Shown here one piece after another: positions 2,757 through 33,895 of a DNA stretch of 64,000 nt (positions are counted from its first letter, which is position 1; every line of letters starts with the position of its first letter). This DNA is from Falsiroseomonas algicola (GTDB taxonomy: Bacteria; Pseudomonadota; Alphaproteobacteria; Acetobacterales; Acetobacteraceae), in NCBI RefSeq assembly GCF_011040385.1, contig NZ_JAAIKB010000006.1, positions 248,001 to 312,000 on the forward strand, given 5' to 3'. The notes beneath the pieces were generated by a model that saw only the letters and a list, made by a program, of their open reading frames with translations, ran no database searches and was not told the DNA's origin. The position numbers and the translations under genes were made by a program.

Positions 2757-3557
2757 TCAGCGTCCGCCGCCGATATCCACCAGCGTTCCCGTCATGTAGG
2801 AGGCCGAGGGCGAGAGCAGGAAGGTGATGAGCGCCGCCACCTCCTCCGGCTCCCCGGGCCGGCCCAGCGCGATCGCGGCCGTCATGGTCTTCAGGCGTTC
2901 GGCCCCGGCCTTCGCTTCGTGGGTGGCGGTGCGGATCACGCCCGGCCGCACGGTGCAGACGCGAATACCCAGCTTCCCAACCTCATTGGCGAGGCCACTC
3001 GTAAAACCATCGACCGCGCCCTTGGCGGCGGCATACATCACGCGGCCGGGCTGGCCACCGAGCACGCTGGCGCGGGAGCCGACATTGACGATGACGCCGC
3101 CCTCTCCCCCGCGATCCGTCGCCATGCGGCGCACGGCCTCCCGCGCGCAGAAGACGGTGGTGCGGAGGTTGCTGTCCATCATCCGGTCGTAATCGGCCGT
3201 GGTGAGGTCGGCGATCTTCGCATCCGCGCTGCCGCCGGCATTGTTCACCAGGCCGCGCACGGGGCCGATGCGGTCAGCGGCTTCGAACAGCGCGGTGATG
3301 CCCGCTTCGGTCTGCACATCGGCCTGCACGGCTTTTGCCTTGCCGCCCGCTGCCTCGATCGCCGCGACGACACCAGCGGCGCTGTCGGCGTCACGGGCGT
3401 AGTTGACGACGACGGTCCAGCCATCGGCGGCGGCGGCCTTGCAGGTCTCCGCCCCGATGCCGCGCCCGCCGCCGGTGACGATCAATACACCGCGTGTCTG
3501 AGGCGGCCGATTCAGATCTCCGGGCCCTTCGGCCCTCCGATCATCGGACGCCATCAT
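2757..3557 (-). CDS. SDR-family NAD(P)-dependent oxidoreductase
   Basis: A 266-residue classical short-chain dehydrogenase. The TGGGRGIG cofactor loop is at 28-35, NNAG at 104-107, catalytic Ser160 in NVGSRAS, and the Tyr174/Lys178 pair in YAAAK. The C-terminal PGEPEEVAALITFLLSP and TGTLVDIGGG segments resemble FabG and glucose/3-oxoacyl dehydrogenases. Its start overlaps the stop of the BKACE gene (ATGA), so the two are translationally coupled. The first 20 residues are a non-conserved extension, and the true start could lie slightly downstream. It probably interconverts a hydroxy and a keto intermediate of the pathway. The substrate is not predictable. Confidence 0.88.
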   Translation of the reverse strand: MMASDDRRAEGPGDLNRPPQTRGVLIVTGGGRGIGAETCKAAAADGWTVVVNYARDADSAAGVVAAIEAAGGKAKAVQADVQTEAGITALFEAADRIGPVRGLVNNAGGSADAKIADLTTADYDRMMDSNLRTTVFCAREAVRRMATDRGGEGGVIVNVGSRASVLGGQPGRVMYAAAKGAVDGFTSGLANEVGKLGIRVCTVRPGVIRTATHEAKAGAERLKTMTAAIALGRPGEPEEVAALITFLLSPSASYMTGTLVDIGGGR

Positions 3558-29925: not shown

Positions 29926-30077
29926 CCGCCCACGCAAGCGTGAAGCGACTCCGCGCGCAACGTTCCGCCCGCCGCCGCGTTGCCGGTCACTAGCCCGTCA
30001 ACGCGCCTGAACCCCGCCGAACCATGACGGGGCCGCCGCATTGCCCCCCCGGAATCAACAACCGGGGGCCTGCCGCC

Positions 30078-32210
30078 TTGCAACTCGATCTCATCCTGCG
30101 TGGCCAATCCAACGCCGCCTACCTTGCCGAACTCGATGGCTTCGCGGGCGCGGGGCGGCTGGTGACGGAGGTGGAGCGCCTGCTCGGCTTCGATGGCGTG
30201 AACGATCGTGTGACGCTGGTCTACGACCGCGACGGCCAGGGCGGCGACACCACCTACCCCGCGACGGCCTTCCTCGACGAATGGATGGACCCGACCGCGG
30301 CCGGCGGCTGGCAGGCCGGGGAGCTGGAACGCCTCTTCCTGGACCGCATGGAGCAATACCGGGCCGATGGCCCCGGCGACGCCACCGCCATGGTCTGGCT
30401 GCACAGCGAATATGACAGCCGCGACCCCAACCTCTCCGCCGCCTCGCTGGCGGAGGCGATGCGCGTCGATGCGGCACTCGTCCGCGCCACGCTGGGTCGC
30501 GATATCCCCTACCTCTATGTCGCCGCGCATCCCTATGGCGACGGCACCGACACCGGCCACCAGGCCATCCGCCAGGCCATGGAGACGCTGGCCGCCGATC
30601 CGGCCTTCAACGCCCGCATCGCCGCCCGCGCGCCGGACCTCAACGTCGATCTGGACAATTACGACGGCAACGAGGCGACGCGGGAATATGGCGGCGCGCA
30701 TATCTCGGCCTCCGATGCGCTGATCATCGCCAGCCGCATCGCCCGCGCGGCGGCGGAGGAATGGGCCGCCTATGCCAAGCCCGGCTCGCCCGTCGCGCTG
30801 GCAGGCGGCAACATCGCCTCGGACGGCCCCCAGGTGGTGGCGGCGACGCTGCTGGACGCGACGCGGCTGCAGGTGGATGTGCGGCATGACGACACCAGCG
30901 GCTTCCTGGCGCTGGATGCGGATGCCGCGTCCGGCGTCGGCTGGTCCGCCCGCCTCGCCGACGGCACGCTGGTGGCCGCGACCGGGGCCACGATCCTCGA
31001 TGCCGACAGCCTCGTGGTCAGCTTCGGCCAGGCCCTGCCGGCCGGCGCGGTGCTCGACTACGCCTATGGCATCGGCAAGCTGTGGGGGGCGAGCGGCACC
31101 GGCCAGGGCCATGCGGTGATGGATTCCTCGGGCCTGCCGGTCTGGACCGCGGCCCAGGGCGTCGCCATCGGCACCGCCGCGCCGCCCGTGGTCGCGGAGC
31201 CCGCACCAAGCCCCGAACCGGCCCCGGCCACGCCGCCTGTCGTGGTCACGCCGCCGCCCGTCGTGCTGGAGCCCGCGCCGATCCCCGAGCCCGCGCCGGC
31301 GCCGCCGCCCGCCGCCCTCGCCCCACCCCCGCCCACCCCCGTGATCGACACCACCGCCCTGTTCCGCGACCAGGTGACGGTCACGATCACGGCGCCCGAG
31401 ACCGCCCTGGTCACCACCGCCGATGGCCGCAGCGCCACCGTGACCGGCAGCGAGATCCGTTTCGCCGATGGGCGGGAGGTGATCGGCCATGGCGGCACCG
31501 CCGGGCTGGTGGACCGGCTGCATGACATCGTGCTCGGCCGCGACACCTCCCTGCTCGGTACCGGTTGGGCGGCCGATGCGCTGGATGCCGGGCGGATCGA
31601 GGCCCGCGACCTCGCCCAGGGCTTCCTGGCGCAGGGCGGCATCGGCGAGATCGCGGATGACCGGGACTTCGTCACGGCGGCCTGGACCAACGCCTATGGC
31701 GCGCCGCCCGTCGAAAGCGGCACCGCCCTGCTGCTGCAACGGCTCGAGGCCACCAACCGCGCCGACTTCCTCGTGATGGTGGCGACGGAGGGCGAGGTGC
31801 TGGCCGCGCAGCCCGCCATGACCAGCGGCATCTTCATCGCGGATTGGGGCATGAGCTTCGCCTCCGGCCTGGTCCAGATGGCCTATGGGCGGGAGGCCAC
31901 GGTGGCGGAGCTTCGCGCCCTGGACGCCCAGCTCGATTCCGGCTGGTCCCCGGCCGACCTCGCCCGGGAGCTGACCATGACCGATGAATACCAGGCCCGC
32001 ATCGCGGGTCTGGACGAGGCCGGGGTCGCGACGCTGCTGCATGAAGGTGCGCTTGGCCGTGCACCGGATGCCGCGGAGCTGGCGGTGTGGAGCGCCTTTT
32101 TCGCCAATGGCGCCACCACCACCGACCTCGCCGTAGCGCTGGCCGATTTCTGGGAATTCCAGGCCGCCGTGCAGAGCCGGGCCGCCGACGGCATCGCCGT
32201 CATCGCCTGA
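30078..32210 (+). CDS. SGNH-hydrolase-like protein with Pro-rich linker and DUF4214 repeats
   Basis: About 710 residues from TTG 30078; the open frame extends to an ATG at 30024, but those codons are low-complexity and cover a 7-bp-stem hairpin (30046-30068). Residues 1-230 look like an SGNH/carbohydrate esterase: LDLILRGQSNA with Ser11, VWLHSEYDS near 107, resembling the WxQGExD block of sialate esterases, and YGGAHISASDA with His208. The usual Asp three residues before that His is Gly. A Pro-rich linker (about 375-430) follows, then two or three DUF4214-type units (LGRDTSLLGTGWAADAL, AYGREATVAELRALDA, ALGRAPDAAELAVWSAFF). No signal peptide. DUF4214 often occurs in exported surface proteins, so a non-classical export route is possible. 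Confidence 0.8.
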   Translation: MQLDLILRGQSNAAYLAELDGFAGAGRLVTEVERLLGFDGVNDRVTLVYDRDGQGGDTTYPATAFLDEWMDPTAAGGWQAGELERLFLDRMEQYRADGPGDATAMVWLHSEYDSRDPNLSAASLAEAMRVDAALVRATLGRDIPYLYVAAHPYGDGTDTGHQAIRQAMETLAADPAFNARIAARAPDLNVDLDNYDGNEATREYGGAHISASDALIIASRIARAAAEEWAAYAKPGSPVALAGGNIASDGPQVVAATLLDATRLQVDVRHDDTSGFLALDADAASGVGWSARLADGTLVAATGATILDADSLVVSFGQALPAGAVLDYAYGIGKLWGASGTGQGHAVMDSSGLPVWTAAQGVAIGTAAPPVVAEPAPSPEPAPATPPVVVTPPPVVLEPAPIPEPAPAPPPAALAPPPPTPVIDTTALFRDQVTVTITAPETALVTTADGRSATVTGSEIRFADGREVIGHGGTAGLVDRLHDIVLGRDTSLLGTGWAADALDAGRIEARDLAQGFLAQGGIGEIADDRDFVTAAWTNAYGAPPVESGTALLLQRLEATNRADFLVMVATEGEVLAAQPAMTSGIFIADWGMSFASGLVQMAYGREATVAELRALDAQLDSGWSPADLARELTMTDEYQARIAGLDEAGVATLLHEGALGRAPDAAELAVWSAFFANGATTTDLAVALADFWEFQAAVQSRAADGIAVIA

Positions 32211-32237: not shown

Positions 32238-32288
32238 CCTGTCGCCGCCGCCCGGGGCAGCGTACCCCCCTGGGCGGCGGCTTGCCGT

Positions 32289-32304
32289 TGTTTCACGTGA
32301 AATC
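32289..32304. other. parS-like ParB-binding site
   Basis: TGTTTCACGTGAAATC matches 14 of 16 bases of the conserved bacterial parS sequence TGTTTCACGTGAAACA, including the full 12-bp palindromic core. It lies in the non-coding gap before the FTR1 gene. hisBHAF and hslVU, which lie near the replication origin in several alphaproteobacteria, are within 10 kb. Confidence 0.7.
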
Positions 32305-32321
32305 GTGATGCTTCGGGCTTA

Positions 32322-32342
32322 AATTGCGAACGCTTCGCAATT
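32322..32342. promoter_or_regulatory. Fur-like iron-responsive operator
   Basis: Nine-base arms AATTGCGAA and TTCGCAATT are perfectly complementary around CGC. The TTGCGAA...TTCGCAA core resembles alphaproteobacterial Fur sites, and it ends 18 bases before the ATG of the FTR1 iron permease. Assignment to Fur rather than another iron regulator is inferred from the target gene. Confidence 0.6.
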
Positions 32343-32360: not shown

Positions 32361-33143
32361 ATGTCCCTTATGCTCGATGCCGGCCTGATCCTGCTGCGGG
32401 AGGGGCTGGAAGCCGTCCTCGTCCTCGCCGCCCTGGCCGCCTTCCTCGGCCGCGCCGCGCCCGAACGGACCGGCGCGCTGGGCGCGGGCGCCGCCCTCGG
32501 GCTGGCCGCCAGCCTCGTGGTCGCCATTCTCTACGCCCTCTACCTCGGCGGGGAGCATGATGACCGGGTGGAGGCCGCGACCTGCCTGCTGGCGGCCGGC
32601 CTCATGCTCTGGACCGGCGGCTGGCTGGCCCGCCACGCCGATCCCCGCGCCTGGTCGGCGGCGCTGAAGACCCGCACGGATCGGGCGCTCTCCGGCCGCC
32701 GCGTGGCCGTCGCCGTCGCCGCCATCGGCTTCCTCGCGGTGTTCCGCGAAGGCGCGGAGACGGTGCTGTTCCTCGCCGCGCTGGGCGCGGAGCAGCAGCC
32801 GATCCCTGTTCTGGCGGGCGCCGTGGTGGCAGCGCTGGTGCTCTTCGGCTTCTGGGTCGTCATCCGCCGCGGCACGCGCCGCCTGCCGCTGCGGCCGCTC
32901 TTCCTTGGCACCTCGCTGTTTCTGCTGGTGATGGCGGCGCGCTTCACCGCGGCGGCGGTGCAGGAACTGCAGGAGCAGGCCTTCATCAGCTTCACGCCGG
33001 TGGACCTGCCGGAAACCCTGCTGGCGATCGGCATCCCGGACAGCGCGGAGGCGCTGGTGGCCTTCCTCGCCGTGATCTGCCTCGCGCCCCTCGCCCTGCT
33101 GCCGCGGCGGCGGCCGTCCACGACGCCCGCCGCGGCGGAGTAA
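32361..33143 (+). CDS. FTR1-family iron permease (EfeU-like)
   Basis: 260 residues, about seven membrane helices. Both iron-binding REGxE motifs are present: LLREGLEAVLVLAAL (residues 13-17 REGLE) and FREGAETVLFLAAL (129-133 REGAE). Such permeases carry ferric or ferrous iron across the inner membrane, usually with EfeO and EfeB or an oxidase. Neither partner gene is here. The preceding palindrome suggests iron repression. The downstream gene azlC begins 80 bp later and is functionally unrelated. Confidence 0.92.
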   Translation: MSLMLDAGLILLREGLEAVLVLAALAAFLGRAAPERTGALGAGAALGLAASLVVAILYALYLGGEHDDRVEAATCLLAAGLMLWTGGWLARHADPRAWSAALKTRTDRALSGRRVAVAVAAIGFLAVFREGAETVLFLAALGAEQQPIPVLAGAVVAALVLFGFWVVIRRGTRRLPLRPLFLGTSLFLLVMAARFTAAAVQELQEQAFISFTPVDLPETLLAIGIPDSAEALVAFLAVICLAPLALLPRRRPSTTPAAAE

Positions 33144-33223: not shown

Positions 33224-33895
33224 ATGCATCCGCCCCTCCGCACCGGCATCCGGGAGGCGCTTGGCGCCCCGGCCCTCGCCATGGGCGCCACCTTCCTGGC
33301 CTTCGGCGCCGCCGTCGCGGAAGCGGGGCTTTCCCTGCCATGGGCGCTGCTCTGCACCGGCGCGGTCTATGGCATGGCGGGGCAACTGGTGCTGCTGCAG
33401 GTCGCGGCCGGTGGCGGGGCCGCGTTGCCGGCGGTGGTGGCGGCGACGGCCGCCAATGCGCGCTTCCTGCCCATGGCCGTCGCCATCGCGCCGCTGCTGG
33501 GGCGGGGCTGGCGGCGATACCTCTCCCTTCCCTTCATCGCCATCACCCCCTGGGCGGCGGGGATGCGCGTGCTGCCGGGCCTGCCGGAGCCCGCGCGCCT
33601 GAACTGGTTCCTGGGCTTCGCGATCGCCTCCTGGTGCGCCGCCATGGGCGCCACCGCGGCGGGGCACCTCGCGGCGCCGCTGCTGCCACCGGCGCTGCGG
33701 GCCGCGGCGCTCTTCACCAACCCGCTCTACTTCGCCCTGCTGCTCGGCGCCGACATCGCGCGGCCGGGCGTGGGCGCCGCCATCCTGGCGGGCGTGGCGG
33801 CGGCGCCGCTGGCCTGTTGGATCGGCGGCGCCTGGGGCCTGCCCGTCGCGGGCCTCATCGCCGGCACCATCGCCTTCCTGGTCCTGCGCCGATGA
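33224..33895 (+). CDS. azlC: AzlC-family branched-chain amino acid exporter subunit
   Basis: 223 residues, largely hydrophobic with several membrane helices. The family start GIREALGAPALAMGATFLAFGAAVAEAGLSLPWALLCTGAVYGMAGQ (about 8-54, locator only) matches AzlC/YgaZ, as does AANARFLPMAVAIAPLL near 81-97 (N-AR-hydrophobic block). With AzlD it exports branched-chain or related amino acids. It overlaps azlD by 4 bp (ATGA). Confidence 0.9.
   Translation: MHPPLRTGIREALGAPALAMGATFLAFGAAVAEAGLSLPWALLCTGAVYGMAGQLVLLQVAAGGGAALPAVVAATAANARFLPMAVAIAPLLGRGWRRYLSLPFIAITPWAAGMRVLPGLPEPARLNWFLGFAIASWCAAMGATAAGHLAAPLLPPALRAAALFTNPLYFALLLGADIARPGVGAAILAGVAAAPLACWIGGAWGLPVAGLIAGTIAFLVLRR

What the first reader, a model, noticed from the sequence alone, without database searches (positions are those of the whole stretch)
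32289..32304. Near-perfect parS site in a non-coding gap, in origin-proximal gene context
TGTTTCACGTGAAATC matches 14 of 16 bases of the conserved ParB site, with the whole TTTCACGTGAAA core. A 12-bp core match by chance in 64 kb of GC-rich DNA is unlikely, and it lies outside genes. hisBHAF and hslVU, within 10 kb, are near oriC in several alphaproteobacteria (from memory, Caulobacter). If real, this segment is part of the centromere region and flagellar/chemotaxis genes lie next to it.
Basis: partly seen in the sequence, partly recalled or inferred. Interest (0 to 1): 0.7.

Follow-up and report, generated by a model that had tools for sequence, protein, structure and literature searches.

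The report
parS-like palindrome in iron-permease promoter
A sequence that looks like a bacterial centromere site is real and lies towards the origin side of the chromosome, but it sits in the control region of an iron-uptake gene and was probably kept as part of that gene's switch; whether the centromere protein also lands there is open.

Summary
TGTTTCACGTGAAATC is at 32289-32304, between genes, and is not chance. In the four of 15 genus genomes that carry the next gene (FTR1-family iron permease), a 17-bp block GTTGTTTCACGTGAAAT is invariant while most of the intergenic DNA has drifted.

The parS cluster lies with parAB on another contig. Collinear relatives place the site about 182-188 kb from the perfect parS pair and about 0.2 Mb from a local GC-skew minimum. 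"Origin-proximal" is supported at that level; membership of the compact parS cluster is not.

The site has a second identity. Seven FTR1 orthologues of 55-63% identity in other genera carry T[T/G]TCACGCGAC(A/G)-like elements at the same place, ahead of a -10-like hexamer and a Fur-like palindrome; an eighth (48%) does not. None is a parS core; three or four substitutions separate each from TTTCACGTGAAA. Of 92 12-base stretches upstream of this gene, TTTCACGTGAAA is the best conserved in six of them. The parS-like palindrome sits on an inherited promoter element.

Best reading: an FTR1 promoter/operator element that in one clade came to match the parS core; probably a weak ParB site, unlikely to be a centromere part in its own right. 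ParB ChIP-seq would decide.

The parts
32289..32304 (+). parS-like palindrome TGTTTCACGTGAAATC (12-bp core 32291-32302)
32287..32303 (+). 17-bp block GTTGTTTCACGTGAAAT, invariant in 4 of 4 genomes with this FTR1 gene
32297..32302 (+). inferred -35 hexamer GTGAAA (4 of 6 to TTGACA), the right arm of the palindrome
   Evidence: no sigma-70 site reported by the consensus scan
32320..32325 (+). inferred -10 hexamer TAAATT, 17 bp after the -35; TAAATT, TAGATT, TATGTT, TAAATT in the four genomes
32324..32340 (+). Fur-box-like palindrome TTGCGAACGCTTCGCAA
   Evidence: 19 of 22 columns invariant in the four genomes; like palindromes in distant FTR1 orthologues; a 1-mismatch copy 57 bp before the ATG of a solute-binding-protein gene in the same genome. 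Copies elsewhere are not above the reversed control in number. The Fur assignment is recalled
32244..32281 (+). GC-rich hairpin, probable terminator of the DUF4214 gene, ending 5 bp before the 17-bp block
   Evidence: whole 66-nt piece -35.4 kcal/mol, z -3.1; the three relatives z -3.9 to -4.9; one search lists one weaker terminator-like site at 32273-32286
32361..33143 (+). FTR1-family iron permease gene, inferred to be driven by this promoter
   Evidence: PF03239, E 2.7e-24; NCBIfam TIGR00145 and EfeU models match below their cut-offs
30024..32210 (+). upstream gene with DUF4214 domain
33224..33895 (+). AzlC-family gene downstream

Best explanation
The palindrome is primarily a cis-regulatory element of the FTR1 iron-permease promoter. 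Its right arm (GTGAAA) stands where a -35 hexamer would, 17 bp before a TAnnnT -10. A Fur-like operator over the expected start site would shut the promoter when iron is plentiful. In other genera the same promoter has T[T/G]TCACGCGAC(A/G)-like elements at this place. In the ancestor of four genomes of this genus a few substitutions gave TTTCACGTGAAA, the parS core (direction inferred). ParB, whose specificity residues are of the parS type, can probably bind there weakly because one full arm is present, but a segregation role is not needed to explain the conservation. Shown: position, conservation, homologous element, synteny. Inferred: promoter hexamers, Fur control, ParB binding.
For: Site present in exactly the 4 of 15 genus genomes with this FTR1 gene. 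The 17-bp block is 17 of 17 invariant, against 31 of 112 columns in the rest of the intergenic region (36 of them gapped) and 80 of 158 four-fold sites of FTR1. The 20-bp spacer to the Fur-like palindrome has no indel in 4 of 4 although only 5 of 20 columns are invariant. Six distant orthologues have an element 22-27 bp before the Fur-like box with 21 mismatches in sum to TTTCACGTGAAA, against a shuffle mean of 41.3; 0 of 20,000 shuffles were as low. Of all 92 12-base stretches upstream of the own Fur-like box, TTTCACGTGAAA is the best matched in these six (21 mismatches; median stretch 34). A seventh (L032) has TGTCACGCGACA.
Against: The consensus scan found no sigma-70 promoter here; my hexamers match 4 of 6 each in the four genomes and 2 to 5 of 6 in the distant loci. 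The promoter reading does not explain why GTTG on the left and T on the right are also invariant. Reaching the exact parS core by promoter drift alone is a coincidence, lessened but not removed by the short mutational distance. An eighth homologue, L176 (48% identity, partial match), shows no such element. The 17-mer lies near parA/parB in 7 of 52 exact matches, so the sequence may serve in or near centromeres elsewhere. The Fur-like anchors and the 18-30 bp search range were chosen after seeing the sequences, and the promoters are homologous, so the test shows conservation, not independent origin.
Confidence: 0.66

Rival explanations
1. It is a genuine outlying parS site: ParB nucleates here and spreads a few kb, adding to origin segregation, as in bacteria with scattered parS sites.
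For: Whole 12-bp core; one perfect 8-bp arm; about 182-188 kb from the parS pair. ParB carries the equivalents of Caulobacter R173, T179 and G201 (residue numbers from PMC7383237, offset inferred). The 17-mer is near parA/parB in 7 of 52 exact genome matches (400 kb in all), while 47 other loci (160 kb, same tblastn) gave none; this control is small and from one bacterial family. P. aeruginosa ParB binds sites with one intact arm and two changes in the other (PMC4368675, passages read).
Against: Position 15 is T in 4 of 4; among the 51 genus sites only the 4 FTR1 sites have this change. The site goes with FTR1: the 11 AzlC loci of genus genomes without FTR1 have no match at up to 2 mismatches within the 1.5 kb or less held. 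An ancestral promoter element explains its place. In P. aeruginosa two-mismatch sites silence only weakly and one of the four oriC-near sites suffices for segregation.
Confidence: 0.2
2. It is the operator of an unidentified dimeric regulator of FTR1, with ParB-site and -35 resemblance both incidental.
For: The outer four pairs are symmetric in this clade (TTTC..GAAA) and in three distant loci, L028, L031, L032 (TGTC..GACA), as if both half sites had changed together; the conserved block is wider than a -35 hexamer.
Against: No other copy of the core at up to 1 mismatch in this genome outside the C8 set; near copies of four distant forms (up to 1 mismatch) number only 2 in 468 kb of own sequence. 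Outer symmetry is broken in L029, L030, L174 and L175.
Confidence: 0.12
3. Chance resemblance without function.
For: A 2-mismatch match can occur by chance: 2 reversed-control hits in 15 genomes.
Against: Invariant in four genomes that differ at about half of the four-fold sites of FTR1.
Confidence: 0.02

Closest known systems
Chromosomal parS sites (ParABS)
   Same: Full CACGTG-centred 12-bp core and one perfect arm; towards the origin side of the chromosome; parS-type ParB in the genome.
   Different: Two mismatches at the end of the other arm; 182-188 kb from the perfect parS pair; tied to one gene's promoter; absent from 11 of 15 genus genomes.
Dispersed two-mismatch parS5-parS10 of P. aeruginosa (PMC4368675, passages read)
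   Same: Two mismatches to consensus, away from the main cluster; one arm intact as in parS7-9; CACGTG intact as in parS6.
   Different: There binding was measured; here it is only predicted. The present site overlaps a conserved promoter element.
Fur-controlled promoters of FTR1/EfeU-type iron permeases (recalled)
   Same: FTR1-family gene preceded by a Fur-like palindrome over the expected start site.
   Different: The region where a -35 would lie reads as a parS core in this clade.

Membership tests
parS (chromosomal centromere-like site) | 16-bp palindrome close to TGTTTCACGTGAAACA | tested here: inconclusive
   14 of 16, core whole, but position 15 is T in 4 of 4
parS (chromosomal centromere-like site) | Bound by the cognate ParB | not testable with these tools
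   Only the parS-type specificity residues of ParB could be checked: present
parS (chromosomal centromere-like site) | Clusters with other parS sites near parAB | tested here: not met
   Other sites are on C8 with parB; this one is 182-188 kb from the perfect pair, and 163-167 kb from the CG-ended copy in G009 and G006
parS (chromosomal centromere-like site) | Lies in the origin-proximal part of the chromosome | tested here: met
   About 0.2 Mb from a local GC-skew minimum in own contigs and in G006; oriC and dnaA were not located and whole-chromosome skew was not computed
Fur-controlled FTR1 promoter | Fur-box-like palindrome between the -35 region and the start codon | tested here: met
   Fur binding not testable, and the box consensus is recalled
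Fur-controlled FTR1 promoter | sigma-70 hexamers at 16-18 bp | tested here: inconclusive
   4 of 6 + 4 of 6 at 17 bp in 4 of 4; below the scan's threshold
Fur-controlled FTR1 promoter | -35-region element conserved in orthologues of other genera | tested here: met
   6 of 6 scored plus L032; L176 (48% identity) has none; the 28-39% homologues L033-L056 were scanned only for parS-like matches

The most novel reading that the evidence does not exclude
A dual-use site: a promoter element of an iron-uptake gene has evolved into a ParB nucleation site, so that ParB loading over the -35 couples FTR1 expression to segregation or replication. It would be a visible case of a new parS born from a promoter element three or four substitutions away, at a distance from the main cluster that segregation probably tolerates.
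Probability: 0.15. Interest if true: 0.6.

Novelty: new variant of a known kind. Interest (0 to 1): 0.34.

Why it matters
parS prediction rests on a 12-16 bp match. This case shows a near-perfect, conserved match, towards the origin side, that has an older explanation as a promoter element, so match plus conservation is not enough. If ParB does bind, it offers a traceable origin of a new parS site from a promoter and a test of ParB effects on a single, probably iron-controlled gene.

Tried and rejected

The first alignment of the four upstream regions had two loci on the wrong strand and is void; one search replaces it. The first script failed on a file name.

Terminator tail as the cause of the left-hand conservation: a predicted hairpin ends 5 bp before the block in the window, 2 and 0 bp before it in L025 and L026, and runs 1 bp into it in L027. 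But the tail is not a clean T run, and L029 has TTTCAC a few bases behind a stop codon without such a hairpin in view. It can explain part of the conservation at most.

Fur-like box elsewhere in the genome: 6 rows (2 forward, 4 reverse) against 5 for the reversed control (2 and 3), so number alone says nothing. Of the four other places one is 57 bp before a solute-binding-protein ATG and one lies beside an ABC-permease gene; the other two (L080, L081) were not assigned.

The parS-like match at another FTR1-type gene in G115/G171 (L038, L039) lies inside the coding sequence of a longer protein: a different arrangement.

AzlC loci of the genus: at up to 2 mismatches only those of G000, G009 and G013 have the site. 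L064 has a 3-mismatch match TGTTCCATGTGAACCA; the other near matches have 5. G006 has no close AzlC copy, so it was judged.

I then ran and mended: number of substitutions (three or four, not two to four), the hairpin distances in relatives, the control, the size of the control, L176 in the summary.

Full report
Check of the observation. TGTTTCACGTGAAATC stands at 32289-32304 and is the only match in the window at up to three mismatches to TGTTTCACGTGAAACA; 0.03 are expected from shuffles. It lies in a 150-base gap between a DUF4214-domain gene and an FTR1-family iron-permease gene. Both mismatches are at the right end.

The genome's own centromere. The window is bases 248001-312000 of contig C66 (375,404 bases) of a 6.56-Mb, 90-contig genome. 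Two perfect parS sites (C8:26157 and 29411), a CG-ended copy (C8:5213) and a one-mismatch copy (C8:87537) lie on contig C8, with the best parB at C8:30934. Frames that I take for trmE, gidA and parA lie beside it (named by position and recall). One perfect site is in front of the trmE-like frame and one just behind the gidA-like frame. The window's site is the only other exact copy of the 12-bp core in the genome.

Position. C66 from 236 kb on and nearly all of C8 are collinear with G006 contig C11 from 1,000,000 down to 701,218. G006 C11 has the same length, 1,574,521, as the Roseomonas ponticola SYSU M41301 contig, so I take it to be that strain. In G006 the site (954179) is 187.5 kb from the nearer perfect parS (766615); in G009 it (107780) is 184 and 187 kb from the pair (291815, 295068). 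The CG-ended copy is nearer: 166 kb in G006, 163 kb in G009. In G013 site and pair are on different contigs. For the own genome the sum is 95 kb to the contig end, about 60 kb of gap by G006, and 26 kb on C8: about 182 kb. GC skew over the stretches read has its minimum near C8:50 kb, and near 740 kb in G006, so the site is about 0.2 Mb from it. Skew also changes sign near 160-200 kb of C66, so this is a local statement; dnaA and oriC were not located. Caulobacter tolerates an added parS cluster in a zone of about 500 kb (PMC5815017, abstract passage, section 17 and other passages read).

Conservation. Of 15 genus genomes, 4 have the FTR1 gene and the same 4 have the site: G000, G006, G009, G013 (G006 and G009 are listed with 7% and 6% contamination). 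On the corrected alignment GTTGTTTCACGTGAAAT is invariant, 17 of 17. The rest of the intergenic columns are invariant in 31 of 112 with 36 gapped columns; four-fold sites of FTR1 are invariant in 80 of 158. A second palindrome, TTGCGAACG..TCGCAA, 20 bases downstream, is also conserved (19 of 22 columns). The 20 bases between have 5 invariant columns but no length change. The last base of the 16 varies (C, G, C, C) and position 15 is T in all four.

A promoter underneath. The second palindrome looks like a Fur box (recalled). Elsewhere in the genome a one-mismatch copy stands 57 bases before the ATG of a solute-binding-protein gene, but copies in the genome do not outnumber the reversed control. 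A search of 397 family genomes found 10 with a match at E 1e-40 or better, 8 of them outside the genus. Seven of these eight (55-63% identity) have a related palindrome ahead of the start and, before it, an element of one form: TTTCACACGACA (L029), TTTCACGCGACG (L030), TGTCACGCGACA (L031, L032), TGTCACTCGACA (L028), TTTCATCGGACA (L174), ATTCACGCGACG (L175). The eighth, L176 (48%, partial match), shows none. In the six scored (L032 was not, because its gene start had to be found by hand) the element ends 22-27 bases before the palindrome and differs from TTTCACGTGAAA by 21 bases in sum. Shuffles give 41.3 on average (sd 2.3) and 0 of 20,000 reached 21. The range searched and the anchors were chosen after looking. 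A fairer test is: of all 92 12-base stretches upstream of the own Fur-like box, TTTCACGTGAAA is the best matched in these six promoters (21; the next are its overlapping neighbours; median stretch 34). None of the seven elements is a parS core; each is three or four substitutions away. I read the right half as the -35 (GACA/G there, GTGAAA here) with -10-like hexamers 16-18 bases on. These are weak: 4 of 6 each here, 2 to 5 of 6 in the distant loci, and not reported by the promoter scan. The outer four pairs are symmetric in this clade and in three of the seven distant loci, which leaves room for a dimeric regulator.

Could ParB still bind? The genome's ParB aligns to 6t1f (E 2.7e-69; Caulobacter ParB by recall) with the same GKSRSHVANT helix and an AGHARA motif. 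With an inferred offset of 10 the residues named in PMC7383237 (passages read) are R173, T179 and G201 in both; position 184 is G here. In P. aeruginosa, sites with one intact arm and two changes in the other are bound less well than perfect ones; parS6, with changes at positions 1 and 15 and an intact CACGTG, ranks next to last; two-mismatch sites silence weakly (PMC4368675, passages read). P. aeruginosa ParB also binds single arms (PMC10419367, abstract read). The exact 17-mer occurs in 52 loci of the species-genome collection. Three are FTR1 loci (L131 Acetobacteraceae MAG, L138 R. ponticola, L165 Falsiroseomonas stagni), which seem to be G009, G006 and G013 again. Seven others have parA or parB within the fetched stretch (L125, L136, L137, L152, L155, L159, L162). 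The other 42 were not examined beyond the marker proteins. A control of 47 unrelated loci had none, but it is only 160 kb against 400 kb and from one family, so the excess is likely rather than proven. Weak to moderate ParB binding is plausible.

Weighing. Site tied to the gene, fixed spacing to the Fur-like box, an older homologous element at the same place, and a fixed non-consensus base favour a promoter role as the reason for conservation. The exact core, the parS-type ParB and the position keep a secondary ParB role alive. I put the promoter reading at 0.66, an outlying functional parS at 0.2, another regulator's operator at 0.12 and chance at 0.02.

Literature. Text searches for parS in promoters (three papers listed, one of them on repression of promoters adjacent to parS3 and parS4 in P. 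aeruginosa, seen as a listing only) and for Roseomonas with parS and ParB (none) showed no earlier report of this site in that library; some searches were other listings. A review (PMC7022226, passages read) describes ParB effects on promoters near parS in a few species.

Noticed in passing
G207, G190, G157 (family relatives): 15, 12 and 10 parS matches at up to one mismatch per genome; the ten listed for G207 and for G190 are perfect and spread over 7 and 8 contigs, where most of the 200 genomes have 0 to 4 sites. Extra replicons or a mobile element carrying parS could explain it.
   Followed up: no
L038 and L039 near position 3045 (L038 reoriented): A one- or two-mismatch parS-like sequence lies inside the coding sequence of a longer FTR1-type protein in two genomes of another genus.
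   Followed up: partly
window 32244-32281: Strong GC hairpin behind the DUF4214 gene, predicted with different stem sequence in all four genomes.
   Followed up: partly
G000 C8:87537, G006 C11:702714, G013 C24:93831: A one-mismatch site TGTTTCCCGTGAAACA about 60 kb from the parS pair on the other side, shared by three of the four FTR1-bearing genomes; one arm has the Noc-type C at the inner position.
   Followed up: no
G000 contig C66, about 160000-200000: GC skew changes from positive to negative some 100 kb before the window's site, which may mark a rearrangement in the arm.
   Followed up: no
G000 C66:160202 (L082): A two-mismatch copy of the Fur-like palindrome lies beside the start of an ABC-transporter permease gene.
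   Followed up: partly
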